Shown: in pieces, positions 3,001 through 23,248 of the stretch | Layout: every line of letters starts with the position of its first letter | How positions within the stretch are numbered: position 1 is the stretch's first letter | Source of the DNA: Bifidobacterium sp. ESL0682 | GTDB lineage: Bacteria; Actinomycetota; Actinomycetes; Actinomycetales; Bifidobacteriaceae | Direction: 5' to 3' | NCBI RefSeq assembly: GCF_029392815.1 | Contig: NZ_CP113942.1 | Span: 682,001-746,000 of the forward strand | DNA length: 64,000 nucleotides | Notes under the pieces: model-generated | What the model saw: the letters and a program-made list of their open reading frames with translations, nothing else | Databases searched by the model: none | What the model was told of the DNA's origin: nothing | Program-made: the position numbers and the translations under genes

Positions 3001-3382
3001 CATCACCGGTGCCACCCCGAAGCGCAAGCGCCTCGAGCTGGTCGACCAGTTCAACTCCGACGATACCCCGGTTTTCCTGATTTCCCTGAAGGCCGGCAAT
3101 ACGGGCCTGAACCTTACGGGTGCCTGCGTGGTGGTGCACGCCGACCCGTGGTGGAATGCCGCCGCGCAGGAGCAGGCCACCGACCGTGCCCACCGCATCG
3201 GCCAGACCCAGGACGTCAACGTTTACCAGATCGTCGCCAAGGACACCATCGAGGAACGTATCCTGAAGATGCAGCAGTCCAAGAGCGACCTCGCCCATCG
3301 CTTCGTCGACAACGCCGGCACCGGTACGTCCGCTGGCATTTCGAACCTGACCAAGGACGATTTGCTGCAGTTGCTGGGATGA
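2..3382 (+). CDS. SNF2-family DEAD/DEAH-box helicase (5' end outside window)
   Basis: C-terminal 1,126 residues of a large SNF2/Rad54-like double-stranded DNA translocase; the frame is open to the first base, so the true start lies upstream. Visible are the SNF2 N-lobe beginning near residue 512 (LRPYQVEGFRWL), Walker A DEMGLGKT near 541, a DEAQ box near 723, the TGTPIENR motif, and a helicase C-lobe ending in the SNF2 signature TDRAHRIGQ near 1064. Bacterial members remodel protein-DNA complexes, often with RNA polymerase; the substrate here is unknown. Two acidic, Ser/Gly/Asp-rich insertions (about residues 625-695 and 905-955) interrupt the catalytic lobes and look like disordered loops. 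The N-terminal zinc-finger region common in this family would be off the window. It is followed by about 320 bp without a gene, so it is probably not co-transcribed with the transporter. Confidence 0.93.
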   Translation, partial: ALVEAVQRREFVTYGKKLAFVHSRDSFDERSRSILAILGRAIEIRKSVSGDYEFYQSKAEAQEMRLSDDETAELLDLFVDADVTLDYVPLHGNFASAIPVHVVDGDPDLGLEVVRSNDENDETDGVASLDREPVRRGEEGSPQKQGYVIRHSLNVEKFIIGRASSFVVVGSPDASVSFGLDTPEIHRCSSAMVSNRNLLGVLCAGDERSDLYLSGDDIEEFSRTVLPALDPIASQEADESGDDSESDTQSAVTDDLTPAASRGTSHHGIAVKLPSELVKMRRVPCHIETYLDRDKNGITCDVQARYGDERFHVFSGIGPDEPVARDKETERLAVEAVRQYFPMPNGPIARIREDDDKAIYKLLNEGLPVLRGLGEVFSTPSFDGLTSSPHPVFKIGLAMKSGLVEISPIADEIDPSEVPALLNSYRKRRKFHRLRNGAFVNMADVDTGKLDEVTGDLGLKPVDLDSGAVSVPAYEAYYLDNESEDEDKSDEFRSYLNDLRVIDPKIYQVPKSLVQVLRPYQVEGFRWLNAVADKGFGGILADEMGLGKTVQMLSYLVSRHDEQRKIGPNLIVCPASLVYNWAAECAKFAPELNVQVLAGSKAERRATLKNTKSWYEGRKNSGMENTDPLNHNQMLDGSDAELLTSHPSVAGEQAQGALVSTTHLDDSATSVSADDGWQGADSPQLLDIDAEDEWVAPDVLITSYDLLRRDIDDYDGLECYCMTLDEAQYIKNHATKSAHAVRSISARHRFALTGTPIENRLSELWSIFDFLMPGMLGAYKHFRDRFEMPILSGDENAQVKLQAFVGPFILRRLKSQVLKDLPDKIENVITVQLEGEQRKLYAALEQQLRATLNKQRDIEYKTGKIQILAQLTRMRQACCDPRLLFSNVGSNVVKKDAHVWGAPSREIERADDAPIDELNETADASANAIVGNNDLSGTGSGAPGVIGKPRKVTSAKLDAIEELVSSCQDAGRKMLIFSQFTSFLDLIAERLRKNGVAYNVITGATPKRKRLELVDQFNSDDTPVFLISLKAGNTGLNLTGACVVVHADPWWNAAAQEQATDRAHRIGQTQDVNVYQIVAKDTIEERILKMQQSKSDLAHRFVDNAGTGTSAGISNLTKDDLLQLLG

Positions 3383-3702
3383 ATGTGATGATGTTGTTCA
3401 TGCAGTCAATGTCCGCAATGAAATTAACACCGCAAGTGTGATGAATGCCATAAATAAGTTGAACAGAGTAGATTTGCGAAACTTATAAATGGTTACAAGA
3501 TTTGCTTATAGGCGTGCAAGCCGGTCGGCGCGCCTCGACTCTTATAATAAAGGGCAGTCATCGAATCGTGTGGTTGATATCTTTCGAAGAATGGGAAACG
3601 TTCCGGTAGGTGCCGGTAGTACGCTGTTTCATCGAAATCTTTGCCGCGGCCGGGTATCCTCCGGCATTTTCGACGAATGGATAGGTAAGAGAAGGGTTCT
3701 TC
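3383..3702. other. Intergenic region ahead of the oligopeptide transporter cluster
   Basis: 320 bp without a convincing gene. A TATAAT hexamer lies at 3543-3548 and could be the -10 of a promoter for the first binding protein; I see no good -35 at the right distance. A Shine-Dalgarno-like aagagaagg precedes the start at 3703. Confidence 0.3.
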
Positions 3703-5328
3703 ATGAAATATAGAAAAGTTCTTGCGGCCTTCACGGCCGTCGCCGCGCTGGCTTCGCTTGCGGCATGCGGTGGGGTCAAGAAGGCTGCCGACACGTCGGA
3801 CTCGACCATCACCGTCGGCACCACCGACAAGGTCATCAACCTCGATCCGGCCGCGGCTTACGACAACGGGTCCTACAACATGCATATCCAGATGTACCCG
3901 TTCCTGTTCGCGCCGAAATACAACTCCAACGAGCTGTCCCCGGACATCGCCGCGGATGATGGCACCTGGAGTGCAGACGGCACGCAGTTCACCGTCAAGA
4001 TCAAGCCGGGCCTGAAATTCGCCAACGGCCATACCTTGGATTCCAAGGATGTGAAGTTCTCGATCGATCGCGTGAAGAACATCAATGACCCGAACGGCCC
4101 TTCCTCGATTCTGGTCAACATCAAGTCGGTCCAGGCTCCGAACCCCACCACCGTGGTCTTTACCTCCGCTGTGCCTCACGATGTCACGCTGAAGCAGTCG
4201 CTGTCCACGCCAGCCGGCCCCATCGTCGACGATCAGGTCTTCTCGGCCACCAAGGCCACGTCGGCCGACGACATCATCAAGGCCAACGCCTTCGCCGGCC
4301 CTTATCGGCTCACCCAATACAAGCCCGACGAAATGGCGGTTTTCGAAAAGAACCCGTCCTATAAAGGACTGACCCCTGCCAAGAACAAGACGGTGCAGGT
4401 CAAGTTTTTCTCCGACACCTCGAACCTCAAGATGGCAGTGGAAAAGGGCGATGTGAAGGTGGCTTCGCGCTCGCTGACCCCGACGGACATCCAGGACTTG
4501 AAGAAGAGCGGCAAAGTCAAGGTTCTCAAGGGCCCTGGCGGTGAGGAACGCTTCATCACCTTCAACTTCCTGATTCAGCCCTATGGTGAGAAGACCCCGA
4601 ATGCGAACTCGAAGGAGGCGCTTGCCGTGCGTCAGGCCGTGGCCGATCTGGTTGACCGCCAGGAAATCGCCTCGAAGGTCTACAAGGGCACCTACACGCC
4701 GATGTATTCCTATGTTCCCTCGGGCATGATGAGCCATACCGACACCCTGAAAGCCGCATACGGCGACGGCAAGGGCGGTCCCAGCCTCGAGAAAGCCAAG
4801 AAGACCTTGAACGAGGCCGGCGTGAAAACCCCAGTCAATCTGAAGCTGCAGTACAACGGCGACCACTACGGTTCGTCGTCAGCCGATGAGTATGCGGCCA
4901 TCAAATCCCAGCTGGAGGCGGGCGGCCTGTTCAAGGTCGACCTGCAGCAGACCGAATGGGGACAGTACAACAAGGACCGTGTGGTCACCAAGGATTCCGA
5001 CGGTTCCTATCCTGCCTACCAGATGGGCTGGTATCCCAGCTATTCCGATCCCGACAACTATCTCTCCCCGTTCTTCCGTGCCGGCAATTTCGTCAACAAC
5101 GGCTACAAGAACGACGCCATCAGTGGCTTGATTGCCAAACAGGCCGGCGAGCAGGACCAAGACAAGCGCGTGGATATGTTGAAGCAGATTCAGCAGATGG
5201 AAACGCAGGACCTTTCCACCCTGCCTCTCTTGCAGGGAAACCAGATGGCTGTGACCGCGCCCGGCATCAAAGGTGTGACCTTCGACACTGCATCGCGTTT
5301 CCGTTACGCTCCCATCACCAATTCCTGA
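3703..5328 (+). CDS. Oligopeptide ABC transporter substrate-binding lipoprotein (copy 1 of 3)
   Basis: Family 5 extracellular solute-binding protein (SBP_bac_5; DppA/OppA class), 541 residues, the usual family length. It starts with a lipoprotein signal peptide: basic MKYRK, hydrophobic stretch, lipobox SLAAC with the lipidated Cys at residue 22. It should sit anchored on the outer face of the membrane, capturing peptides for the permeases encoded at 9223-11527. The protein is strongly similar along its whole length to the next two genes (shared segments such as KPGLKFANGH, VKGPGGEERFI and YLSPFFR), so this is a tandem triplication. The start at 3703 has an upstream purine-rich ribosome-binding site. 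A hairpin terminator follows directly, which would let this copy be expressed separately from the others. The peptide specificity cannot be read from sequence. Confidence 0.93.
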   Translation: MKYRKVLAAFTAVAALASLAACGGVKKAADTSDSTITVGTTDKVINLDPAAAYDNGSYNMHIQMYPFLFAPKYNSNELSPDIAADDGTWSADGTQFTVKIKPGLKFANGHTLDSKDVKFSIDRVKNINDPNGPSSILVNIKSVQAPNPTTVVFTSAVPHDVTLKQSLSTPAGPIVDDQVFSATKATSADDIIKANAFAGPYRLTQYKPDEMAVFEKNPSYKGLTPAKNKTVQVKFFSDTSNLKMAVEKGDVKVASRSLTPTDIQDLKKSGKVKVLKGPGGEERFITFNFLIQPYGEKTPNANSKEALAVRQAVADLVDRQEIASKVYKGTYTPMYSYVPSGMMSHTDTLKAAYGDGKGGPSLEKAKKTLNEAGVKTPVNLKLQYNGDHYGSSSADEYAAIKSQLEAGGLFKVDLQQTEWGQYNKDRVVTKDSDGSYPAYQMGWYPSYSDPDNYLSPFFRAGNFVNNGYKNDAISGLIAKQAGEQDQDKRVDMLKQIQQMETQDLSTLPLLQGNQMAVTAPGIKGVTFDTASRFRYAPITNS

Positions 5329-10321: not shown

Positions 10322-11527
10322 TTGTCTAGAGGAACTTCTGCTTCCAGCGCCGTTTCGCTCTCCAATGACGAACGTCTGGAACATCTTAACGCCAAGAAAA
10401 AGCAGTCCTGGTTCTCCAAGCTGCCCCTGATCAGCGAACTGCGTATGTCGGTCGGCTGGCAGCGCGGCATGCTCATCACCGGCCTGGTTATCACTATCTT
10501 CTTCGTGCTCGTGGCTATTTTCGCGCCGGTTTTGGCACCTTACGGCTATGCGCAGATCAAGGACGCCAACGGTGAGGCATTCCCGACCCAGTCAGCGCCC
10601 AGCGCCGCTCATCCATGGGGCACCACGGTTGCTGGCTTCGACGTGCTGAGCCGTACCATCTGGGGTGCGCGTACCGCTGTCATCGCGATTATCGTCGCCG
10701 TCCTGCTTTCCATCTTTGTCGGTGTGCTGCTCGGCCTGGTCTCCGGCTACTTCGGCGGCTGGATTGACCGCGTGCTCGTTGTGATTGCCGATGCCATCTA
10801 TTCCTTCCCGTCGCTGCTGCTCGCCATCCTGATGGCCATCGTCATCTCGGGCGGCCAGTCCAGCCTGTGGGGCGGCATCTTTGCCTCCGGCATCTCAATT
10901 ACCGTGGTCTACATTCCGCAGTACTTCCGCACCATCCGCGCCGAAGTGATGCGTATCAAGGAATCCGCCTACATCGAGTCCGCACGCGTGGTCGGCGCCT
11001 CCACCTGGAGGATTATGACCAAGCACCTGCTCAAGAACTCGACGCGTACGCTGCCGGTCATCCTGACCCTGAACTCTTCGGAAGCGGTCTCCACACTCGC
11101 AGGCCTCGGCTTCCTTGGCTTCGGCATTGAGCCGACCGCGGCCGCCGAATGGGGCTACGATCTGAACCGTTCCGTCGCTGACGTCACCGCCGGCATCTGG
11201 TGGACCGCCATCTTCCCAGGCCTGGCCATTGTGCTCATCGTCTTGGGCATCACGCTGGTGGGCGAGTCCCTCAACGATCTTGCCGATCCGCGTCTGCGCG
11301 CCCGTAAGTCCGCAGCCGAGGTCATCGGTTCCATTGAAGATACGTCCGTCGATCCGAACAAGAGCGACGACGTAGCCTTGGAAATCGACGGCAAGACCAT
11401 CGATGCGAACGACACGAGTGATATCGCGACTGCGGTCGTGGACGATCCCGTTGTCCCTGGTCTTCCGAATTCCTCAGGAGCCGCAGGACAGTATTCGGAC
11501 GCTCAGCGTCAGGGAGATGAACGATAA
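10322..11527 (+). CDS. oppC: Oligopeptide ABC transporter permease, OppC/DppC type
   Basis: Second permease subunit, 401 residues, starting with TTG one base after the oppB stop. A cytoplasmic N-terminal region of about 50 residues precedes the first helix (MLITGLVITIFFVLVAIFAP). The OppC_N segment and the transport domain carry the EAA loop ESARVVGASTWRI near residue 218. After the last helix there is an unusual acidic tail of about 70 residues (from about 330), rich in Asp and Ser; most OppC proteins end near residue 300-330. The stop overlaps the ATPase start in the sequence TAATG. It forms a heterodimeric pore with OppB. Confidence 0.93.
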   Translation: MSRGTSASSAVSLSNDERLEHLNAKKKQSWFSKLPLISELRMSVGWQRGMLITGLVITIFFVLVAIFAPVLAPYGYAQIKDANGEAFPTQSAPSAAHPWGTTVAGFDVLSRTIWGARTAVIAIIVAVLLSIFVGVLLGLVSGYFGGWIDRVLVVIADAIYSFPSLLLAILMAIVISGGQSSLWGGIFASGISITVVYIPQYFRTIRAEVMRIKESAYIESARVVGASTWRIMTKHLLKNSTRTLPVILTLNSSEAVSTLAGLGFLGFGIEPTAAAEWGYDLNRSVADVTAGIWWTAIFPGLAIVLIVLGITLVGESLNDLADPRLRARKSAAEVIGSIEDTSVDPNKSDDVALEIDGKTIDANDTSDIATAVVDDPVVPGLPNSSGAAGQYSDAQRQGDER

Positions 11528-13337
11528 TGAGCGAAACGAACAATACACAAGCCGAAGCCGGCAAGGCTTCAAAGTCTGCTGACGCCGCCAAAGAGACTTC
11601 CTACGGCCAAGCCGCAGCGAACGCCGTGATGCCGCACCTTTCCAAGGACATGCTGGCCTCGGTCGATAAGCTGGGCGTCTCCTTTGTCACCGACGCAGGC
11701 CCCATTAAGGCCGTTGACGACATTACCTTCACCATTCCGCGCAAGAGTGTGGTCGGTGTGGTCGGCGAATCCGGTTCCGGCAAGTCCGTCACCGCACGCT
11801 CGATCATCAAGCTGCTGCCTGACACGGCATCGACTTCCGGCGCAATCTACATCTCCAACAAGGAAGGCACCGGCGAGCTTGACGCGTTGAAGCTTTCCGG
11901 AGAGCAGCTGCGGCAGCTCCGTGGTGGCGAAGCCGCCATGGTCTTCCAGGAGCCCAACTCCGTTCTGAATCCGGTCTTCAAGATCGGCTGGCAGATCGAA
12001 GAAGGCCTGCGTGCCCACGGCATGAAGGACAAGAAGGAACTTCGCGAGAAGTCCATCGAGATCCTGAAAAAGGTCGGTATTCCCGACGCTGAGACCCGTG
12101 TTGATTACTATCCGCACCAGTTCTCCGGCGGCCAGAAGCAGCGTATCGTCATCGCGATGGCGCTGGTCTTGAACCCCGGCCTGATTCTCGCGGACGAGCC
12201 CACCACGGCGCTCGATGTGACCGTGCAGATGGAGATTCTCGACCTGCTGCGCCTTGCGCGTGATGAGTTTGGCGCCTCGGTGCTCATCATCACCCATAAC
12301 ATGGGTGTGATTGCCGATATCGCCGACCAGGTGGTCGTGATGTATCAGGGCCACGTCGTCGAACAGGGTGATGTGGAGCAGATCTTCTATCATCCGAAGG
12401 ACCCGTACACTCAGCGTCTGCTGGCTTCTGTGCCGCGTATCGGTGAGAAACTAGTTGTTAAGAACAACGACGGCAGCGTCGTCAAGCGTTCTGTGGATTG
12501 GCGCAAGGAACCTGTGGTCGTCGAGGCCAAGGACATGAGCGTTACCTATCCCGGCCGCCTGATGCAGCCCGATTTTGTGGCCGTTAACAAGGTCAACTTT
12601 GAGATTCATCGTTCCGAAGTGCTCGGCCTGGTGGGGAGTCCGGTTCTGGCAAGTCCACTACGGGCCGTGCCATCGCCGGCTTGCAAAAGGTCAGCGACGG
12701 CTCCTTGAAGGTCTTCGGCGTCGAGATGAATGGCGTCAAGGAACGCGATTTCAAGTCCAAGCGCGCTGACATCGGCTTCGTCTTCCAGGATCCGGGCAGC
12801 TCGTTCGACCCACTCATGACCATTGCTGAAAACGTGGCCGAGCCGCTGATTGTGCACAAGAAGTATGCATCGGTTGCTGACGCGAGGAAATACGTCGCCG
12901 AACTGATGGAAATGGTGCAGCTTCCGCGCGTCTACATGGACCGCTTCCCGCACGAGCTTTCCGGCGGCCAGCGCCAGCGCGCCTCGCTCGCTAGGGCCCT
13001 CGCTCTGAAGCCGTCCCTGCTGATTGCCGACGAGCCGACGTCCGCACTGGATGTGTCCGTTCAGGCCAAGGTCTTGGAACTCTTCAAGCGCCTGCAGGTT
13101 GAGATCGGCTTCGCATGCCTCTTCATCACCCATGACCTCGCGGTAGTCGATATGCTCGCTGACCGCATCATGGTGATGCACAAGGGCCAAATTGTCGAAC
13201 ACGGCGACGCCAGCCAGATCATTGAGCACCCCCAGGACGCCTACACCCAAAAGCTCCTGGCCTCACTCCCGGTCCCCGACCCGCGCCAGCAGCGCGAGCG
13301 TCGCGCCCAGCTCCATCGCTTGCGCGAGCAAGAGTAA
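11527..13337 (+). CDS. Fused OppD-OppF peptide ABC transporter ATPase, frameshifted at 12633-12636
   Basis: Two nucleotide-binding domains in one chain, about 603 residues if the frame is restored. Domain 1: Walker A GESGSGKS near residue 79, signature FSGGQKQR near 198, Walker [13 protein letters not shown] near 220. Domain 2: signature LSGGQRQR and Walker [13 protein letters not shown], read in another frame from about 12640. The break lies in the G run 12633-12636, exactly in the second Walker A: one more G gives [19 protein letters not shown], the expected P-loop. As written, the first frame ends at 12708 and the second domain has no natural start. Because other genes in the window show the same kind of homopolymer change, an assembly error is likely. 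The protein powers peptide import through OppBC. Confidence 0.88.
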
Positions 13338-13595: not shown

Positions 13596-13702
13596 AATAG
13601 TAAACTTGTTGAATTTCTAGTCGGTGCCTTTGTAAATTGCATAAGATAGTGTAAACATGAAAACTATACTGGGATAGATGAGATATGCAAGGGAGAGATC
13701 TT

Positions 13703-16700
13703 GTGAATAGCGAACTCGATTTTGAAATGGAGCTGATTCACCATCTCGAGTCCATCGGTGGAACCAAGCAGTGGGAATACTTACCAGAAGTTAAAACATT
13801 AGATGCCTTGTGGATGAATTTTCGTTCTATTCTTGAGAGAAACAACAAAGAGAAATTACAAGGAACTTCACTTTCTGATACTGAGTTTGCTCAGGTCAAG
13901 AAAGTTATTTGTGGTCTTGGATCCCCGTATGAAGCCGGACGCTGGATTTATGGTATGAATGGTGTCACTCAGGTCGAGGTAGACCGTGATGATAAGTCAG
14001 ATGGCAGTAAAGGTGACCATATATTTCTGACGGTTTTTGACCAGTCCAATGTCGGGGCTGGGAATACTGTCTATCAAATTGTCAATCAGATCGAGCATCC
14101 AAGGGTTTTGGCAGGTCGAAAGCAACGTCGTTTTGACACCACATTGTTGATTAATGGTCTACCTGTTATTCATATCGAAGAGAAGTTCCACCATCATGAT
14201 GCGCATGAGGCATTGAATCAAATTCGCCAATATATCGACGAAGGCCAGTTTAGTGACATTTTTTCGACAGTTCAGATATTGGTTGGTATGACGCCTGATC
14301 AGGCGTTGTATATGGCTAATACTGACTCCGAATCATTTAATACGGATTTTGCTTTTCAATGGCAGCGTGAAGCTGATAGCAAGCCTGTTTGGGGTTGGCG
14401 AGAGTTTGCTGATCTCATGCTTTCCATCCCAATGGCCCATCAAATGGCTACCAATTACATGATTCTTGATGGGGATCCCAAGCATAAGAATCTTATTGTA
14501 ATGCGTCCGTATCAAGTATATGCCACCAAACGTGTGATTAACGCTTTGAAAAAATATACCTTCGGAGTCGACAAACACGAAGTCGGCTACATTTGGCATA
14601 CCACGGGCTCGGGCAAGACCATCAGTAGCTTTAAGACCGCTTGGTTGGCGTCTCGTCTACCTAACGTCGATAAAGTCGTATTTGTGGTTGACCGCGTTGC
14701 TCTTACTGATCAGACATTCGCTAAATACAACGCTTATGACCCTGATACGGATGATGAAAACAATAACGGTGTTGTTTCCGACACGGCTAATACGGGAGTT
14801 CTTGCACAAAAGTTGCGTAGCAAGCAGTCCAACAATACCATTGTGGTAACCTCCATTCAAAAGCTTGACCGTTTATGTAAGCGTGACTCATTTGTTGTTC
14901 CAGATAAGAATTTTGTTTTTATCGTAGATGAAGCTCACCGTTCCACTAACGGTGACATGCTCAAACGGATTAAAAAAGGCTTCCCACGATCTGCATGGGT
15001 CGGTTATACCGGAACGCCTGTATTCGATGGTGATTTGACCCGACAGGCTTTTGGTGATGTTCTTCATACCTATACCATCCGTGAAGCAATTGCCGACGGG
15101 AATGTACTTGGGTTCAAGGTTGATTTTGAACATACTCTTAAAGAGGCGGAAATCAAGGATGAACTTTTGCCTAAAATGTTGGAAGAAAAATACCCGAATT
15201 GGAATGAAAAGGCCATCAATAAAAAAATTGCCAATATGTCCCCTGACGAGGTTGATGGTTATATTGATTCTGATTTATACGATAATAACGCTAAACATGT
15301 TGAAGCTGTCGTAGACGATATTGTCCGACATTGGCGTAATCGTTCAAAAGAAGGCAAGTATAGTGCTATTTTAACTACTCATGTTGGTGGTCTACAAGCT
15401 TCTGCTCCGATGGCGTTGCAATATTTTGATGAGTTCCAAAAAAGAATGAGGAACTCATCGCTGAGCAAAAGAATCCTTTGAATGTAGCAGTGACTTTCTC
15501 ATATGCGACTGATAATTCCGAGCATCAGCTGGAGAAAAATAGGGGATTGCGGCGTGCAATGGATGCTTATAACGCTACATTTGGCACTTCTTATGATGAT
15601 GAGACCGTTGACGGTTATTTCAAAGATGTCATGAATCGTCTTCGTGGAGAAGATGACGGGCCTAAGCTCGATTTAGTTATAGTCATTGACCAATTACTGA
15701 CTGGCTACGATGCACCTAAAGTCAATACATTGTATGTTGACCGTACATTGGCTGGAGCCAATTTGATTCAGGCCTATTCGCGTACGAACCGAATTGACAA
15801 CCATAAAGATAAGCCGTGGGGCATCATTGTTAATTATCGTTGGCCTGAAACTTCCAAGAGATTGATGGATGCAGCGTTGAAGGTGTATGCCAATCGTGAA
15901 TCTGCATCTGTGCAAGGCGAACTTGACGATCCAGGACTTTCTGGTGTTGTTGCAGAAGATTTTGAGAAAACCCTGTCGGTTGCAAAGAAAGTTGTGAATG
16001 AGATTCGTGAGCTTTCGGATGGATTTACCGAGGTGCCTCCCAGCGAGAACGCCAAGCAAGAGCTGGCGAATCTCATTAGTAAGTACGGGACCAAGGTTTC
16101 CCAGCTGAAACAGTATACGGAATATGATTATGACCGTCCTGAGAAGTTGTGCCATGAGCTTGGGATTTCAGAAGATAATGACAACTGGATTAATAATTCA
16201 GCACGTAATGTTTTGAAGGATTGGGCCGCCAAGCATCCGAAGGATAACGTGCTTGACCTTTCTATGTTGGACTTTGATGTTGAGCATATTGCCGAAGTGA
16301 AAATTAATTATGACTACATTGCTGAACTTTTGGCTCAGGTTCTCAATGAAGTTCATGAAGGTAAGGATGCTCAGGAAACGTATGGCACATTCGTACGTGC
16401 AACTGACCAACTCGAAGATCGTCGTTTGGCCGGACAGATGAAAGACACTGCTGATGCTGCTATGAACGGTGAGGACTTGAATGTCAAATATCCCGTTCAC
16501 CCTAATTCTGTAGAAGAATTGGTCAGACAGAGAGCAAAAAATAACCGTCAAAACGCTGTCGCTGATTTCCGACATCATTGGGGACTGGTTGACGTCATGA
16601 CTGCCGATTTACTTATCGACAAGATGCTAGAGCGGCACACGCTTGATGCAGATGATTTACGTGATGGTGAAGAACTCTCACAATTGCTCGGAATGGCCAC

Positions 16701-16827
16701 CAAGGGACGTGTCTATAAACAGGCTGCGGAAGACTCGGCGGTTCGCGAACTGTCTCCGGTAAAATACCGGAATGAGTTCCGTGCCGCATTCCGTGAGTTT
16801 GCGGACTATGTTGTTGCCCATTACTGA
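13703..16827 (+). CDS. hsdR: Type I restriction endonuclease subunit R (HsdR), frameshifted at 15438-15443
   Basis: Motor and nuclease subunit of a type I restriction-modification complex, about 1,041 residues after frame repair, the usual HsdR size. The N-terminal nuclease has the E-x-K part of its PD-(D/E)xK site near residue 158 (GLPVIHIEEKF). The translocase has Walker A TTGSGKT near 301, a DEAH box near 409 and the GYTGTP motif; the C-lobe has TGYDAPKVNTLYVDR and QAYSRTNR. I prefer GTG 13703, which has the ribosome-binding site agggagag, over ATG 13685. One base is missing from the run of six A at 15438-15443; with seven A the frame reads KKNEELIAEQKNPLNVAVTF without interruption. This is either an assembly error or a slippage switch. 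The AT-rich base use marks it as acquired. Confidence 0.9.
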
Positions 16828-16844
16828 GGAAATGAGGAATACTG

Positions 16845-18515
16845 ATGAGTGATGTACAGAATGAAGCTAAAGAGCTTACTTCTCAGTTATGGGCAATGGC
16901 CAACGACCTTCGTGGCAAAATGTCGGCTGATGAGTTCCGAGATTATATTCTTGGATTTATTTTCTACCGTTATCTTTCTGATAAACAGGAGAACTATATC
17001 GCCAGTGAGAACTTGCTTGATGTAAAAGCTGGTGAGAGCATTAATGATGCGTACAGACGTCAAGCGCCTGTAGACGGTATCGAAGAGTGGCGAGAAGATA
17101 TAGCTCATGATTTAGGTTACGCTATCGATCCTGAGTACACTTGGACTTCCATGATGCAAGGCATTGCAGATCAGACGATTCATCCTGATTATTTTCAGAA
17201 TATGTTTGATAGTTTCAAACGCAATGCCGAATTGGCTGCCGAGAGGAATAATTCAAAGAGCGAGAAGGATTTCCGAGACGTGTTCTCGGACATTAATCTT
17301 TCCGATTCCAGCTTAGGGAATTCGACTGCTGCAAGAGCCAAAAGTCTTTCTAATATCGCCCAGAAGATTAATGCGGTCACTTTCATGGATGCACAAGGGC
17401 ATGATTTGCTGGGTGACGTTTATGAATACTTGATTTCTGAATTTGCCAGCGATTCCGGTAAGAAGGCAGGGGAGTTCTACACACCGCATGAAGTTTCCCG
17501 TGTTCTGGCTCGGTTGGTAACGTTCAAAGATGCTGAGGCGCTAAATAAAAATGAGAATCCTCTATGGAACTCAGCTCGCAATTTTTCTTTGTACGATCCG
17601 ACAATGGGTTCTGGTTCATTGTTGCTGACAGTACAGAAGGAATTACCTGCACGTACTGAGTTTGCCTCGACTGTATTCTATGGGCAGGAGCTTAATCGCA
17701 CCACTTATAATCTTGCACGTATGAATCTGATGATGCATGGTGTCGGTTTTGAAAGCATGAATCTGCGAAATGCTGATACGCTGGAATCAGACTGGCCTGA
17801 TGGAACAGATGCCAATGGCATCGACCATCCTCTATTCTTCGATGCTGTAGTGGCCAATCCTCCATATTCCCAGCATTGGGATAATGCCGAATCGAAAATG
17901 AAGGATCCGCGTTTTAAGGATTTCGGCAAACTTGCACCAAAATCAAAAGCTGATTTTGCATTCGTAGAGCATTGCATTTATCACCTAAAAGATTCTGGAC
18001 GAATGGCTATCGTGTTGCCTCACGGTGTCTTGTTCAGAGGTGCTGCGGAAGGAACAATTCGTAAGGCGATAATCGACAAGAACTATCTTGATGCTGTTAT
18101 CGGTATGCCTGCGAATCTGTTCTACAATACATCGATCCCTACAGTTGTTTTGGTTTTCTTGAAAAACCGTAGTCGTGACGATATCTTCTTCATCGATGCT
18201 TCCAAAGGGTTTGAAAAGGGTAAGAATCAGAACCATCTGCGTGATGAGGATATCGATATGATTATTGATACTTATGCAGCGCGTAAAGATGTTGATAAGT
18301 ATGCGCATGTTGCACAACTTGATGAAATCAAAGAAAACGAATACAACCTCAATATTCCACGTTATGTCGATACATTCGAGGAAGAAGAACCGATTGACAT
18401 TGATGAGGTCAATCGACAGTTGGCTGAAACCGACAAGGAAATTGCCGAGTTGCAAGCTAAGTTCGATGCCATGGTAAAGGAACTGGTGCCGACTGATAAA
18501 GCAGACGGTCGGTAA
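16845..18515 (+). CDS. hsdM: Type I DNA methyltransferase subunit M (HsdM)
   Basis: N6-adenine methyltransferase subunit, 556 residues. It has an N-terminal HsdM helical domain (about 1-150), the conserved GEFYTPHEVSRVLA near residue 208, an AdoMet-binding motif YDPTMGSGSLLLT near 250 and the catalytic NPPY near 337. The C-terminus is a coiled region rich in Glu and Lys that contacts HsdS. With two HsdM and one HsdS it makes the modification enzyme; with HsdR it restricts. It starts 17 bp after hsdR with a gaggaaatgagg ribosome-binding site, so the two genes form an operon. A gap of about 90 bp follows before hsdS, containing an inverted copy of the operon's upstream repeat core and a near-copy of the recombination core. 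Confidence 0.95.
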   Translation: MSDVQNEAKELTSQLWAMANDLRGKMSADEFRDYILGFIFYRYLSDKQENYIASENLLDVKAGESINDAYRRQAPVDGIEEWREDIAHDLGYAIDPEYTWTSMMQGIADQTIHPDYFQNMFDSFKRNAELAAERNNSKSEKDFRDVFSDINLSDSSLGNSTAARAKSLSNIAQKINAVTFMDAQGHDLLGDVYEYLISEFASDSGKKAGEFYTPHEVSRVLARLVTFKDAEALNKNENPLWNSARNFSLYDPTMGSGSLLLTVQKELPARTEFASTVFYGQELNRTTYNLARMNLMMHGVGFESMNLRNADTLESDWPDGTDANGIDHPLFFDAVVANPPYSQHWDNAESKMKDPRFKDFGKLAPKSKADFAFVEHCIYHLKDSGRMAIVLPHGVLFRGAAEGTIRKAIIDKNYLDAVIGMPANLFYNTSIPTVVLVFLKNRSRDDIFFIDASKGFEKGKNQNHLRDEDIDMIIDTYAARKDVDKYAHVAQLDEIKENEYNLNIPRYVDTFEEEEPIDIDEVNRQLAETDKEIAELQAKFDAMVKELVPTDKADGR

Positions 18516-18522
18516 TCTTTAA

Positions 18523-18533
18523 CTGTATAGGTC
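18523..18533. repeat. Inverted copy of the hsd upstream element core
   Basis: ctgtataggtc is the reverse complement of gacctatacag, the 11-bp core of the direct repeats at 13492 and 13579. It lies eight bases after the hsdM stop codon. Confidence 0.45.
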
Positions 18534-18608
18534 TGTAAGCATTTCAGTATTTTTATTTTTGTTTGATCAACTTACGCTGAAGAAGCAGAGTAAGTGAAGG
18601 AGCGTTCC

Positions 18609-19853
18609 ATGTCTGAACAGCCAAAAGGCCAAAAACTGGTACCGCAGCTGCGTTTTAAGGGGTTCAATGATCCTTGGGAGCAGCGTAAGTTATCAGAGCT
18701 ATTTAATACAACCATTTCTAATAACACAATTTCACGTAATTCCTTGACGCAAACCCCAAGCTCCGTTCAGGACATTCATTATGGCGATATCCTTATTAAA
18801 TATCCTATGTTGCTGAATGCACAACAAGAAAATATCCCCAGTATTTTAGATACCGTCAATGTTTCTACTGGAAAAAGGGCATTGCAAAATGGAGACATAG
18901 TAATTGCAGATACGGCTGAAGATAGTGCGGTTGGAAGAACTATTGAAATCAGGGGTATTTGGAAAGGCCAAAAAGTTGTAGCAGGTCTACATACTGTTCC
19001 ATTACGTCCTTTAAATAAGATGGGCATAGGTTATCTCGCCTACGCAATGAATTCTCCAGCGTATAGAAAGCAATTAATGGGACTCATGCAAGGTGTAAAG
19101 GTACTGTCTTTAACACGTTCAAGTTTATTTCAGACGCAGCTTAGATATCCCAATAATATTGCCGAGCAGTCTCAGATTGGCGAGTTCTTCAAAACTCTTG
19201 ATGATCTTATCGCTGCCTGCGAGCGTAAAACCGAGCTCCTCAAGAAGCGCAAACGCTACTACCTGCAACAGATCTTCAGCCAAAGACTCCGCTTCAAAGG
19301 CTTCACCCAACCCTGGCAAGAGCGTAAGTTAGGAGAACTGTTTGACGAAAGAGCAGAGAGATCAGCTGAGGGAGAGATGCTATCCGTAACTATTGGTAAA
19401 GGCATTGTTCGTTCAAATGAGTTGGAGAGAAAAGACAACTCGAGTGCTGATAAGTCAAACTATAAACAAGTAGAACCTAATGATCTCGCGTATAACACAA
19501 TGCGAATGTGGCAAGGAGCCTGCGGGGTTTCTAAATATTCGGGAATAGTTAGCCCTGCATACACAATTGCGAAGCCAAGAATGAGTACCAATCCTTATTT
19601 TTGTAATCAATTATTTAAAACTAACAGAGCCTTATATGTGTTCAGATGTTTTTCGCAAGGATTAACATCTGATACTTGGAATTTAAAATTTCCACAATTC
19701 TCCGATATTGGTTTTAAGATCCCATCAAAAAATGAACAAGATAAAATCAACATTTTTTTAACAATATTCGATTTGCATATTTCAGTTAATGATAAATACA
19801 TTCGTTTGCTGAATCTTAAAAAACAAAACTACCTACATTTCTTATTCATTTGA
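18609..19853 (+). CDS. hsdS: Type I R-M specificity subunit S (HsdS), expressed copy
   Basis: DNA-recognition subunit, 414 residues from ATG 18609 (ribosome-binding site gaaggag; a GTG at 18594 is less likely). Architecture: short N-terminus RFKGFNDPWEQRKLSEL, variable TRD1 (about residues 30-195), conserved central helix (KTLDDLIAACERKTELLKKRKRYYL), second entry motif RFKGFTQPWQERKLGEL, TRD2 (about 245-400), and a short C-terminal helix with LLNLKKQNYL. Each TRD reads one half of a bipartite target. The DNA at both TRD entry motifs is repeated in inverted orientation in the second copy at 20842-21993, so both TRDs can be exchanged by inversion. The recombinase gene follows directly. The sequence here shows only one of at least four possible alleles. 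Confidence 0.95.
   Translation: MSEQPKGQKLVPQLRFKGFNDPWEQRKLSELFNTTISNNTISRNSLTQTPSSVQDIHYGDILIKYPMLLNAQQENIPSILDTVNVSTGKRALQNGDIVIADTAEDSAVGRTIEIRGIWKGQKVVAGLHTVPLRPLNKMGIGYLAYAMNSPAYRKQLMGLMQGVKVLSLTRSSLFQTQLRYPNNIAEQSQIGEFFKTLDDLIAACERKTELLKKRKRYYLQQIFSQRLRFKGFTQPWQERKLGELFDERAERSAEGEMLSVTIGKGIVRSNELERKDNSSADKSNYKQVEPNDLAYNTMRMWQGACGVSKYSGIVSPAYTIAKPRMSTNPYFCNQLFKTNRALYVFRCFSQGLTSDTWNLKFPQFSDIGFKIPSKNEQDKINIFLTIFDLHISVNDKYIRLLNLKKQNYLHFLFI
18673..18692 (+). repeat. Outer inverted repeat (IR1), left copy
   Basis: 20-bp sequence encoding the WEQRKL entry motif of TRD1; its perfect reverse complement is at 21961-21980. Confidence 0.9.
19197..19335 (+). repeat. Inner inverted repeat (IR2), left copy
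   Basis: 139 bp encoding the central conserved helix of HsdS and the TRD2 entry motif. It is inverted at 21357-21495 with only two mismatches. Confidence 0.92.
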
Positions 19854-19865
19854 GTAATTTATGCT

Positions 19866-19908
19866 ATTCTCCGTTCGCTTGTTATTAACAAACAAGTGAA
19901 CGGAGAAT
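19866..19908 (+). promoter_or_regulatory. Hairpin covering the recombinase ribosome-binding site
   Basis: An 18-bp stem (19866-19883 with 19891-19908, one G-U type mismatch) and a 7-nt loop end four bases before the ATG of the recombinase. The only Shine-Dalgarno-like sequence, cggagaat, lies in the 3' arm of the stem, so read-through mRNA from hsdS would hide it. It could also act as the hsdS terminator, but no T-run follows. Confidence 0.55.
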
Positions 19909-19912
19909 AAGA

Positions 19913-20830
19913 ATGAATAAAAATCAAACATTGCCTATTTACTTCAAACAGTGGATGGAGATGTATAAACTGGGTGCCGTTACCGATGTGACCTATCACA
20001 AATACGTTGTCACTCAGAAAAAATTGAAAGAGTTAGTTCCAAATCTACGATTAGGCAGTATAACTCGAATAAAGTACCAGGAACTTCTTAATGAATATGC
20101 TTGTACGCACGAACGACAAACCGTTTTAGACTTTCACCATCAAGTAAAAAGTGCCTTACTGGATGCGGTTGAAGAAGGTGTTATTCAGAAAGATCCAACT
20201 AGAAGAATCGTTATCAAAGGAACTAAGACTCAAAACCATAAGCCAAAGTTTCTAAACGAAAAAGAATTAGAAGCGCTACTTCAGGAACTTGATCTAAACA
20301 GTTCCGTCAACTGGGATTATATGATTTTATTAATCGCTAAAACGGGGTTGCGGTTTGCCGAAGCTTTAGGTCTGACGCCTAATGATTTTAGTTTCCGAAA
20401 GCAAGAGATTTCTATATCTAAAACTTGGGATTATAAGTCTCCAATAGGAAAGTTTGCTCCGACTAAAAACTCTTCTTCAGTGCGCAAAGTTCGTATCGAC
20501 TGGCAGCTTGCGATGCAATTTAATCAACTGCTACAGGGGCTACCAAAAAGTGAGCCCTTCTTTGTTCAGCGGAAGCGTGTCTATAATGCAACAGTCAATG
20601 ATCGATTGGCAAAGCTGTGCGCGGATGCCAATATCCCTGTTATCTCTGTGCATGGCCTCCGCCACACCCACGCATCGTTATTGCTTTATGCCGGAGTTTC
20701 TGTAGCTTCTGTAGCCAAACGATTAGGACACTCAAATATGACTACAACTCAGACCACATATTTGCATGTGATTCGCGAACTCGAGAATAAAGACAATGAT
20801 AAGGTAATGCAATTTTTGAGTACTCTGTAG
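19913..20830 (+). CDS. Tyrosine recombinase (integrase family), probable HsdS inverting enzyme
   Basis: 305-residue site-specific recombinase. The N-terminal SAM-like core-binding domain (about 1-105) precedes the catalytic domain with the conserved residues Arg147 (TGLRFAEALGL), His247 and Arg250 (HGLRH), His273 (LGHSN) and the nucleophile Tyr283 (TTYLH). It is intact and has no accompanying phage or transposon genes. Its position between the two oppositely oriented hsdS copies, inside their inverted repeats, matches known recombinases that shuffle type I specificity genes; that role is inferred from context. Its start follows a hairpin that masks the ribosome-binding site. It converges with the second hsdS copy, with 11 bp between the stops. 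Confidence 0.9.
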   Translation: MNKNQTLPIYFKQWMEMYKLGAVTDVTYHKYVVTQKKLKELVPNLRLGSITRIKYQELLNEYACTHERQTVLDFHHQVKSALLDAVEEGVIQKDPTRRIVIKGTKTQNHKPKFLNEKELEALLQELDLNSSVNWDYMILLIAKTGLRFAEALGLTPNDFSFRKQEISISKTWDYKSPIGKFAPTKNSSSVRKVRIDWQLAMQFNQLLQGLPKSEPFFVQRKRVYNATVNDRLAKLCADANIPVISVHGLRHTHASLLLYAGVSVASVAKRLGHSNMTTTQTTYLHVIRELENKDNDKVMQFLSTL

Positions 20831-20841
20831 ACGTTTGCTAA

Positions 20842-21993
20842 TTAAATAAATAAGAGTTGCAAGTAAGCTTGCTTCATTGTCTGGAATAGAAGAATCTGAT
20901 TCCTTTGTTTATGAAGCAAACCGTCGGAGATATATAGCAAATCACCGATTAGCTTCTGTTCAGCGCTGTTGTCTGGGTAAAAGATGCTTGCTTCTCTTAT
21001 ATGTTTCCAGTCAGCTCTGGGCATTTTAGTGCCAGAAGATTGCTCCGCAACAGTTAAAAAAGCTCGGCTCTGAATAATTCCATATAAGAAATATGGAATT
21101 AATTCATTAGAAGTAAAAGCCCATATTTCTCCCGATTTGACACCATTTTCTGTTGCAAGCCACCATTTATGGAGATAAGGCCGTAAACGACCAAAAAGAA
21201 CATCGTTTTTCCTGAACACACTAGTTGAAGAAGTACGTATTGTCGTATCTCCGGTTACAACTCCACTATCTTCAGATAAGTTCTCAAGTTCAATATCGAT
21301 TTTTACAGTATCCGAATTATTTGTATTCAAAGATTCTTGACGTATTCTGACGCATGCTCCTAACTTACGCTCTTGCCAGGGTTGGGTGAAGCCTTTGAAG
21401 CGGAGTCTTTGGCTGAAGATCTGTTGCAGGTAGTAGCGTTTGCGCTTCTTGAGGAGTTCGCTTTTACGCTCGCAGGCAGCGATAAGATCATCAAGCGTCT
21501 TAAAAAACAAATCAATTCGGTATTGTTCAGAAATGGAAGGCAAAATTACTGTCCCCTTAAGAACTTCCGAATTCTTTACCTTCATATCATTTTTTGCACC
21601 TTTATTCACAAGCGGGCGCAGGAAATTATTCAAACGAGAAGAAGATTCAAAATAACGTTGAATTATCGGTGGGTATATATTCTTAAGTGGCGAGTAAACT
21701 GCATAAAGTGTTGAGACAATGCCTGCCTGTCCTAGATTTGTCTTTATTATTCCGAAAGGTGCTTCTTTTAGTGGGCTTTTCGTGTAAACAATATCGAAAT
21801 GCTTTACAATTCTGTAATCGCGTACAGATTTACCCGCGAACGAACGACCTTGAAAATCAATTTGATTTACTACGCCTTCTCTGCCTGAAACCGATAAAAC
21901 ATCTTTCTTTGAGAAAGTTCCTTCACGGTTTTTTAAATCAGACGTGGACAAATACCCACTTAACTTACGCTGCTCCCAAGAATGCACTTGCAA
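20842..21993 (-). CDS. hsdS: Second, promoterless HsdS copy (donor of TRD cassettes)
   Basis: 383 residues on the minus strand, colinear with the expressed HsdS from the WEQRKLS motif onward: a different TRD1, the same central helix (KTLDDLIAACERKSELLKKRKRYYL), RFKGFTQPWQERKLG, a different TRD2, and the C-terminal helix QTMKQAYLQLLFI. It lacks the first 22 or so residues of the expressed copy (MSEQPKGQKLVPQLRF) and has no ribosome-binding site before its nominal ATG at 21993. It is therefore most likely a silent store of alternative specificity domains that becomes expressed after inversion. It is bounded by the same inverted repeats as the active gene. Confidence 0.9.
   Translation of the reverse strand: MQVHSWEQRKLSGYLSTSDLKNREGTFSKKDVLSVSGREGVVNQIDFQGRSFAGKSVRDYRIVKHFDIVYTKSPLKEAPFGIIKTNLGQAGIVSTLYAVYSPLKNIYPPIIQRYFESSSRLNNFLRPLVNKGAKNDMKVKNSEVLKGTVILPSISEQYRIDLFFKTLDDLIAACERKSELLKKRKRYYLQQIFSQRLRFKGFTQPWQERKLGACVRIRQESLNTNNSDTVKIDIELENLSEDSGVVTGDTTIRTSSTSVFRKNDVLFGRLRPYLHKWWLATENGVKSGEIWAFTSNELIPYFLYGIIQSRAFLTVAEQSSGTKMPRADWKHIREASIFYPDNSAEQKLIGDLLYISDGLLHKQRNQILLFQTMKQAYLQLLFI
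21357..21495 (-). repeat. Inner inverted repeat (IR2), right copy
   Basis: Reverse complement of 19197-19335 with two mismatches over 139 bp; this near-identity suggests ongoing exchange. Confidence 0.92.
21961..21980 (-). repeat. Outer inverted repeat (IR1), right copy
   Basis: Perfect 20-bp reverse complement of 18673-18692. DNA beyond 21980 is not shared, so this marks the right edge of the invertible segment. Confidence 0.9.
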
Positions 21994-22016
21994 AGATACG
22001 TTTTTATCGGTTTGTA

Positions 22017-22230
22017 TAAGATGAAACAGATTGGCATCTGTATGCAGATGGCGAAGGTTTTGTAGATTATATTGATCGTTATTATGATGTCAGGGTTCTC
22101 AAAGGTTGGAATAGTTTGAAACCGTTTGGAGGTGCTCAATATGAGATAAAGCTGATTGGTCTGTTTCGAAGGACGATGTTGTGGAAAGTACAGTCAGTGT
22201 TTCGAATTTATGGCGTTTATGGAGAATAGG
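22017..22230 (+). pseudogene. Short coding-like remnant, unidentified
   Basis: In the 365-bp gap after the hsdS copy there is an uninterrupted frame of about 70 codons with no start codon. It reads like real protein (motifs DWHLYADGEGFVDYIDRYYD and LKGWNSLKPFGG). It begins right after a stop at 22014-22016 and ends at a TAG. I do not recognise it; it may be the 3' end of a gene lost when the island formed. The rest of the gap holds only the start region of the next gene. Confidence 0.25.
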
Positions 22231-22358
22231 CAACTTGGCCACCGTTTATAAACTAACTGGATTGCTTTGGTGTTCCACGTCTTTCGTGCCGGTATTATTT
22301 ATATGAAAACGATTAATGTAACGAAACATATTATTCTTATTTTGGCTGAGAGGGCATT

Positions 22359-23248
22359 GTGGAAGAGATTCTAGGAAAATTTATAAACATTTTGCCACCA
22401 AAGTTTCAGTGGAGCGCAACTGTAGCTGTGATTGTGTTTCTGCTCTCATTGTTTATTATAAAAGAATTCGGAATAAATCCTTCTTTTTTAATACTGATAA
22501 ACGTCTTAGGAAGAAAATATTATTCATAGATTCTTTGAAATCAGTTTTGGATATGCCGAAAGATGAAAAGTTTTTAGAAAAGCGAAAGTCTTATTTTCAA
22601 AAGAAACTTGAAACCCGTCAGCTACAGAAGCAATTTCAAGAATATGGAAGAGAACGATTAGGAGAGAACAATCCGGAAGTTGAGAAAATATTTAAGCCTC
22701 GCAAATTCTTTGCTTTTACTTTTTACTCAGTTCTCTTTTTTATTTGCACTTTGCTTTTAGCAGTGGTCATGTCACTTTTTGTACACGAGGATAACTTGTC
22801 TTATCCGATATTTACAAAAAATAAGATGTTAAATCTTTTTGTATGTGTAATTTTTTTCGTTGGAGGAATTTTCCTTTGTGTAGGATTGCAACAACTTTGG
22901 CAGCGAATACAAATTAGCTTTGTTTTTCGGACGTTTCTTTTGCCACGTATTCATGTGGAAGGCGGATATGCAATTAATTCTGAGGAATCCGCCTTTGCCA
23001 AAATGATTGAGATAAGAAAGATAAACAATCCTAGGTTCGGTTTTATTGCGCCTCTTTCTGGAGCTTTATTTGGCTGTAGTATACCTTTTTATATTTTATG
23101 TGCTAATCTTCTTAGAATTTTTCCAAACAATTTGATTCTATCTATTTTAGGTTTTGTCTTGATGCTTTTCTGGTTTTATGGTTTATTTTATTCGATTATT
23201 AGTTTTGCGATTTTCCTTTCTTGCGAAACCAATAATAAAGCCTATTGA
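22359..23248 (+). CDS. Multi-pass membrane protein of unknown function, frameshifted at 22484-22489
   Basis: About 296 residues if one T is added to the T run 22484-22489. The N-terminal part, from GTG 22359 (ribosome-binding site gagaggg), reads MEEILGKFINILPP followed by a hydrophobic helix (VAVIVFLLSLFII). After the repaired junction (INPSFFNTDKR) comes a charged cytoplasmic region of about 70 residues rich in Lys and Glu. Two closely spaced helix pairs follow, near residues 113-172 and 225-285. Without the repair the second frame would have to start at 22409 with an implausible Cys-rich leader. I do not recognise a family. It lies in the same AT-rich island as the R-M genes but points away from them. 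A defence or transport role would be guesswork. Confidence 0.6.

What the first reader, a model, noticed from the sequence alone, without database searches (positions are those of the whole stretch)
18673..21980. Phase-variable hsdS locus with two nested inverted-repeat pairs and four TRDs
Two hsdS copies face each other around a tyrosine recombinase. The outer pair (20 bp, 18673-18692/21961-21980, perfect) lies at the TRD1 entry, and the inner pair (139 bp, 19197-19335/21357-21495, two mismatches) at the central helix and TRD2 entry. The opposite copy lacks the N-terminus and a ribosome-binding site, so it is a silent cassette. Inversions can produce four TRD1-TRD2 combinations, hence four methylation patterns and perhaps altered gene expression (a phasevarion). 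Such loci are known in streptococci and some bifidobacteria, so the type is not new, but this instance is complete.
Basis: partly seen in the sequence, partly recalled or inferred. Interest (0 to 1): 0.75.

Follow-up and report, generated by a model that had tools for sequence, protein, structure and literature searches.

The report
Invertible four-way DNA-methylation specificity gene
A bifidobacterium carries a DNA-methylation (restriction) gene whose target-reading parts look able to be swapped by flipping stretches of DNA, giving four possible versions; it is a well-formed example of a switch already known from Listeria and streptococci.

Summary
Two opposed hsdS copies flank a tyrosine recombinase; the outer inverted repeat is 20 bp perfect, the inner 139 bp with 2 mismatches. 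In-silico inversion gives four intact HsdS proteins (414/413/400/401 aa). The 11-bp core AGCGTAAGTTA occurs four times in the 2.09-Mb genome, exactly at the four repeat ends. In a sister species (85% DNA identity over hsdR-M-S) homology stops at the last base of the outer repeat and the recombinase lies the other way round, as inversion predicts. Flipping within this strain was not seen: one genome per species is held. The same architecture, with 3.3- and 2.3-kb inversions and four observed variants, is published for Listeria monocytogenes ST8 (PMC4783014); here the segments are 3308 and 2299 bp. So: new member of a known kind. Corrections: hsdR is frameshifted in this assembly, so the instance is not complete; phasevarion effects are untested. 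Possible new detail: a hairpin masks the recombinase's ribosome-binding site, with unrelated sequence, in four of five Bifidobacterium loci of this layout and in Listeria innocua.

The parts
13685..16827 (+). hsdR, split into ORFs 13685-15481 and 15478-16827 by a 1-bp indel in an A-run
16845..18515 (+). hsdM, type I N6-adenine methyltransferase
   Evidence: PF02384 E 2.1e-112 and PF12161 E 8.4e-19
18569..18578 (-). fifth, reversed 10-bp copy of the recombination core just upstream of the hsdS start; role unknown
   Evidence: same 10-mer upstream of hsdS in G088 (sequence printed)
18609..19853 (+). active hsdS (414 aa)
18673..18692 (+). outer inverted repeat, left arm (WEQRKL codons); core 18682-18692
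18693..19196 (+). TRD1a
   Evidence: Pfam Methylase_S match, residues 21-210; 82 of 159 identical to TRD2 of the G088 opposed copy
19197..19335 (+). inner inverted repeat, left arm (central helix, WQERKL); core 19321-19331
19336..19853 (+). TRD2a and C-terminal tail
19865..19909 (+). hairpin that pairs the recombinase Shine-Dalgarno (GGAG 19902-19905) with CTCC 19869-19872
19913..20830 (+). tyrosine recombinase, 305 aa
20842..21993 (-). opposed, N-terminally short hsdS (store of TRD1b and TRD2b)
20842..21356 (-). TRD2b and C-terminal tail
   Evidence: Pfam Methylase_S match, residues 246-366
21357..21495 (-). inner inverted repeat, right arm; core 21361-21371
21496..21960 (-). TRD1b
21961..21980 (-). 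outer inverted repeat, right arm; core 21961-21971

Best explanation
This is an invertible type I restriction-modification locus of a Bifidobacterium. The tyrosine recombinase acts at four copies of a short site (core AGCGTAAGTTA, within the codons for WEQRKL or WQERKL). Recombination at the outer pair (3308 bp) swaps TRD1 and TRD2 together; at the inner pair (2299 bp) it swaps TRD2 alone; both together give the fourth allele. HsdM with each HsdS form would methylate a different two-part motif. The recombinase lies inside both segments, so its direction is tied to which TRD2 is in use. Shown: anatomy, in-frame products, the core found only at the four repeat ends, opposite recombinase direction in the sister species. 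Inferred: catalysis by this recombinase, flipping within this strain, four motifs, any effect on phages or gene expression.
For: Repeats confirmed. Four intact products of 414, 413, 400 and 401 aa. Core found 4 times in the genome, all here. Sister genome G088: homology 13628-18692 ends at the last base of the outer repeat, both repeat pairs are present (144 bp with mismatches allowed, and 20 bp) and the recombinase is reversed relative to hsdM. 25 of 112 genus genomes, the own one included, have this recombinase; the 24 others all have an hsdS-like match over 45 bits in the fetched stretch and 23 have an hsdM match. Residues R147, H247, R250, H273 and Y283, read as the catalytic set from recalled knowledge of tyrosine recombinases, are kept in at least 98% of 104 aligned sequences. 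Same layout with four observed variants in L. monocytogenes ST8 (PMC4783014 passages).
Against: No read, strain or methylome evidence of flipping in this organism. G088 is another species and its TRDs are mostly unrelated, so inversion is inferred from the recombinase and the flanks only. Of the 24 genus relatives, 12 have an inverted pair of at least 18 bp around the recombinase, 4 only 13-16 bp (near chance) and 8 none, so the layout is not general in the genus. hsdR is frameshifted in this assembly. Codon conservation at the site is not recombinase-specific: 10 plasmid hsdS regions with no relative of this recombinase in the stretch keep CGTAAG in 32 of 36 motif instances.
Confidence: 0.9

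Rival explanations
1. The locus is a fossil or locked: it inverted in the past but the recombinase is now silent, so this strain has one fixed specificity.
For: A strong hairpin masks the recombinase Shine-Dalgarno (z -8.7); the hsdR frame is broken; no flipping data.
Against: The recombinase frame is intact with its motifs kept, the 20-bp pair is still perfect and the 139-bp pair has only 2 mismatches.
Confidence: 0.08
2. TRD exchange is mainly by general homologous recombination at the 139-bp inner repeat; the recombinase matters little.
For: 139 bp at 98.6% identity (2 mismatches) is long enough for homologous recombination in principle. In pneumococcus IR2 and IR3 inversions still occur without PsrA (intact in PMC4948785, much reduced in the later work cited in PMC7096588; passages).
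Against: The homology block ends just after the core, the core lies only at the four repeat ends, and a 20-bp outer pair is short for homologous recombination.
Confidence: 0.05
3. The opposed copy is also expressed, so two HsdS proteins coexist and two motifs are methylated at once in every cell.
For: Its TTG-started frame (383 aa) lacks only about 20 residues. B. longum CCUG 30698, with one HsdM, showed two type I motifs in one culture (PMC4618763 passages), which fits this or a mixed population.
Against: No Shine-Dalgarno-like run before its TTG start; the promoter scan of 18400-22500 found as many promoter-like sites as in shuffles (10 against a mean of 10.1).
Confidence: 0.06

Closest known systems
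Listeria monocytogenes ST8 hsd locus LMR479A_0528-0532 (PMC4783014, passages read)
   Same: hsdR, hsdM, two opposed hsdS around an integrase; two inverted-repeat pairs, at the hsdS 5' end and centre; 3.3- and 2.3-kb inversions; four variants. A similar locus of L. innocua, fetched here, has a recombinase 60% identical to the query and repeats of 19 and 120 bp (the latter with mismatches allowed) containing CAGCGTAAG.
   Different: There, four variants were observed among close strains; here none. Other genus; the inner core lies in LHQRKL codons there and in WQERKL codons here. TRDs were not compared.
SpnIII / cod locus of Streptococcus pneumoniae with PsrA (PMC4948785, PMC7096588, passages read)
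   Same: Inversion between an expressed and silent hsdS with a recombinase at the locus; a short repeat plus longer repeats that contain a short-repeat-like sequence.
   Different: Three hsdS genes and three repeat pairs there, two and two here. Recombinase sequences were not compared.
Streptococcus suis four-way inverting type I system (PMC7394358, passages read)
   Same: Two hsdS, repeats before the 5' TRD and between TRDs, four alleles.
   Different: Sequence relation not tested here.
Bifidobacterium longum NCIMB 8809 and CCUG 30698 type I loci (PMC4618763, passages read)
   Same: Same genus; HsdS genes listed next to a recombinase beside MTase and RTase genes.
   Different: Gene order differs (three HsdS in NCIMB 8809); the passages read mention hsdS recombination only as known from other organisms.
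SpnIV / tvr locus of S. pneumoniae (PMC6265443, passages read)
   Same: Recombinase shuffles TRDs; a hairpin before the recombinase gene holds it down (more than 40-fold more tvrR RNA without it).
   Different: Excision and reintegration rather than inversion; that hairpin is described as a transcription attenuator, the one here would mask the ribosome-binding site.

Membership tests
Inverting type I R-M system (Listeria ST8 / S. suis type) | hsdR, hsdM and hsdS in one run | tested here: met
   hsdR present but frameshifted
Inverting type I R-M system (Listeria ST8 / S. suis type) | second, opposed hsdS without own start region | tested here: met
Inverting type I R-M system (Listeria ST8 / S. 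suis type) | tyrosine recombinase at the locus | tested here: met
Inverting type I R-M system (Listeria ST8 / S. suis type) | inverted repeats before TRD1 and between TRD1 and TRD2 | tested here: met
Inverting type I R-M system (Listeria ST8 / S. suis type) | inversion products in frame | tested here: met
   414, 413, 400, 401 aa
Inverting type I R-M system (Listeria ST8 / S. suis type) | inversion observed between close strains or within a culture | tested here: inconclusive
   only one genome per species held; recombinase is reversed in the sister species G088
Inverting type I R-M system (Listeria ST8 / S. suis type) | several methylated two-part motifs | not testable with these tools
   needs methylome data
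Phasevarion | gene expression changes with the hsdS allele | not testable with these tools
   needs locked mutants and RNA-seq

The most novel reading that the evidence does not exclude
The recombinase gene sits inside the segments that it flips and so swings between reading with and against the hsd operon. A hairpin that pairs its Shine-Dalgarno with an upstream anti-Shine-Dalgarno would block translation from operon read-through RNA, making recombinase output independent of orientation. The hairpin recurs with unrelated sequence in 4 of the 5 Bifidobacterium loci of this layout and in L. innocua, so the structure rather than the sequence would be selected. In addition, cross-recombination between outer and inner cores, which also stays in frame (200-aa half-HsdS or 613-aa three-TRD HsdS), would add specificities beyond four and would explain why a TRD1 here is a TRD2 in the sister species.
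Probability: 0.3. Interest if true: 0.45.

Novelty: new member of a known kind. Interest (0 to 1): 0.3.

Why it matters
If it flips, a clonal Bifidobacterium population holds up to four methylation patterns, which bears on phage resistance, on DNA uptake (a barrier to engineering these strains) and perhaps on gene expression. The recombinase's fixed link to TRD2 and its hairpin give simple tests of how a flipping gene controls its own dose.

Tried and rejected
Codon-lock idea: in recombinase loci the QRK codons of W[EQR]QRK and LHQRK motifs read CAGCGTAAG in 219 of 244 instances (74 of 104 loci had at least one) against 12.4 expected from codon use in the same frames. I first took this as selection by the recombinase. 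As a control I fetched 10 plasmid hsdS regions (of 50 listed and 554 matching records). None has a relative of this recombinase in the stretch, yet CGTAAG is kept in 32 of 36 motif instances (that count also takes WEERK motifs, which one search did not). The idea is thus weakened to at most the Q codon (CAG in 235 of 244 in recombinase loci, in 8 of 19 Q codons of the controls). Five control regions (L173, L174, L175, L178, L181) have some other annotated integrase or recombinase in the stretch.

A genus control could not test codons: the 17 Methylase_S loci from genomes without the recombinase (of 30 loci fetched) held no W.QRK or LHQRK motif. In the genus pattern search, genomes without the recombinase that matched were G032, G036, G040, G049, G095, G107 and G108. 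G036, G107 and G108 have no such motif in the long frames of the fetched stretch; G032 and G049 matches in the fetched stretches lie on contigs that end soon after, and no recombinase relative was found in what is held; G040, G095 and a second G049 contig were not followed. G050 and G102, with a 57% recombinase, read CAGCGGAAG at some sites.

Promoter scan: no more promoter-like sites than shuffles, so I name no recombinase promoter. Hairpin survey, results against: sister G088 (L109) is weak (z -1.2); L120, which has a full hsdS on one side and a one-TRD opposed piece on the other, has none (z -0.1); of 16 of 103 loci with z below -3, five (L030-L034) look terminator-like by eye rather than Shine-Dalgarno-masking. 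The start codons were picked by a script that favours a Shine-Dalgarno. The stem before hsdS is not significant (z -1.25). In one search the TRD1 of the G088 opposed copy was cut wrongly (395 aa), so its rows were dropped. Viral contigs gave 5 relatives at 54-61% identity, not analysed further. The B. breve methylome paper I looked for is not held.
Full report
What is there. hsdR (13685-16827), hsdM (16845-18515) and hsdS (ATG 18609-19853) run one way; a 305-aa tyrosine recombinase follows (19913-20830); a second hsdS runs back (20842-21993). The outer repeat is 20 bp and perfect, the inner 139 bp with 2 mismatches. The genome is a single 2,093,512-bp contig, 94.27% complete. The genus is Bifidobacterium: the same-genus genome G023 has a contig of the same length (1,323,637) and the recombinase at the same place as B. 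choloepi NZ_VYSG01000001.1. The species of the window was not identified.

More than chance. The core AGCGTAAGTTA, shared by the outer and inner arms, occurs 4 times in the genome, all at the four repeat ends; the backwards control occurs 0 times. The 10-mer AGCGTAAGTT occurs 6 times: these four, one reversed copy at 18569-18578 just before the hsdS start, and one elsewhere; its backwards control occurs 4 times.

Products. In-silico inversion of the inner, the outer and both segments leaves an intact hsdS each time: 413, 400 and 401 aa against 414. The recombinase direction flips with each single inversion, so it is tied to TRD2. Recombination between an outer and an inner core also stays in frame (200 or 613 aa). 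The four TRDs are distinct; only TRD2a and TRD1b passed the similarity cut (33 of 124 identical, z 8.5 on 30 shuffles).

Comparative evidence. In G088 (recombinase 93% identical) DNA homology of hsdR-M-S is 84.9% over 5,069 columns and ends at 18692, the last base of the outer repeat. G088 has a 144-bp pair (mismatches allowed) and a 20-bp pair in the same places, and its recombinase is reversed relative to hsdM. TRD1a of the window matches TRD2 of the G088 opposed copy (82 of 159 identical), a change of position. Five Bifidobacterium loci have full-length opposed hsdS copies on both sides of the recombinase: it points with hsdM in two (window, L114) and against it in three (L109, L112, L113). 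Other relatives differ: in L110 and L111 the recombinase lies outside the hsdS pair, and only 12 of 24 have an inverted pair of 18 bp or more around it.

Spread. 25 of 112 genus genomes (the own one included) have the recombinase at E 1e-30 or better. The genome collection gave 115 confirmed relatives, of which the best 80 were kept; by record titles they are mostly Bacillota, with some Actinomycetota, Pseudomonadota and Desulfovibrionaceae. A plasmid of Ligilactobacillus salivarius has a 56% relative beside GbpC/Spa-domain surface-protein genes, with no hsdS annotated in the 8.9-kb stretch, so the recombinase family may not be limited to hsdS.

Hairpin. The leader 19850-19925, with the stem arms 19865-19883 and 19891-19909, folds at -31 kcal/mol (z -8.7, 0 of 200 shuffles as good) with the Shine-Dalgarno GGAG paired. 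In the genus, 4 of 25 recombinase starts have z below -2 with the Shine-Dalgarno fully paired; the four (window, L112, L113, L114) all belong to the five loci of this layout; of 157 other gene starts in the same stretches none does. L. innocua shows the same with AGGAGG fully paired (z -5.9). Against: the sister species is weak (z -1.2). The function is inferred. A precedent is the hairpin before tvrR (PMC6265443 passages). In one search (30 papers with at least 4 of 6 terms, 12 listed) titles and abstract openings showed no such hairpin in an inverting hsdS locus; that is a thin search and no claim of absence from print.

Known kind. L. monocytogenes ST8 has the same gene order, the same two repeat places, 3.3- and 2.3-kb inversions and four variants discordant with strain phylogeny (PMC4783014 passages). 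PMC7394358 (passages) draws the same four-allele scheme and reports 3.9% of type I systems with duplicated hsdS and such repeats. PMC7096588 (passages) states that PsrA inversion at IR2 and IR3 relies on IR1-like sequences within them, which the shared core here resembles. PMC4618763 (passages) lists HsdS and recombinase genes side by side in two B. longum strains and two type I motifs in one of them with a single HsdM.

Caveats. hsdR has a 1-bp indel in an A-run relative to the open G088 frame; the oppD-like gene 11527-13337 also looks split and completeness is 94% where many relatives have 99%, so sequencing error is likely but not shown. If real, the locus would methylate without cutting.

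Noticed in passing
window 15430-15480: hsdR frameshift: a 1-bp indel in an A-run relative to the intact G088 gene; assembly error or a restriction-dead system.
   Followed up: partly
window 11527-13337: An oppD/oppF-like ABC transporter gene appears split into overlapping frames (393 aa and 218 aa), which hints at frameshift errors in this assembly.
   Followed up: no
window 18569-18578: A reversed 10-bp copy of the recombination core lies just upstream of the hsdS start, with the same 10-mer in the sister genome; possibly a regulatory or accessory recombinase site.
   Followed up: partly
L109 (G088), between its opposed hsdS copy and the shared right flank: About 3.9 kb between the opposed hsdS and the shared flank, with frames of 216, 296 and 302 codons; one starts like a TIR-type protein by eye.
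   Followed up: no
L192 (Ligilactobacillus salivarius pLMP1046) 1394-4891: A 56% relative of the recombinase sits beside two divergent GbpC/Spa-domain surface-protein genes, perhaps an invertible surface-protein switch.
   Followed up: no
window 22409-23248: 279-aa frame beside the opposed hsdS with no Pfam match at 0.001; hydrophobic stretches by eye.
   Followed up: no
L079, L066, L070, L058: In these Lachnospiraceae loci the leader of the recombinase contains CAGCGTAAG or a close copy within a predicted stem that also pairs the Shine-Dalgarno, so a recombination site and a translation lock may overlap.
   Followed up: partly
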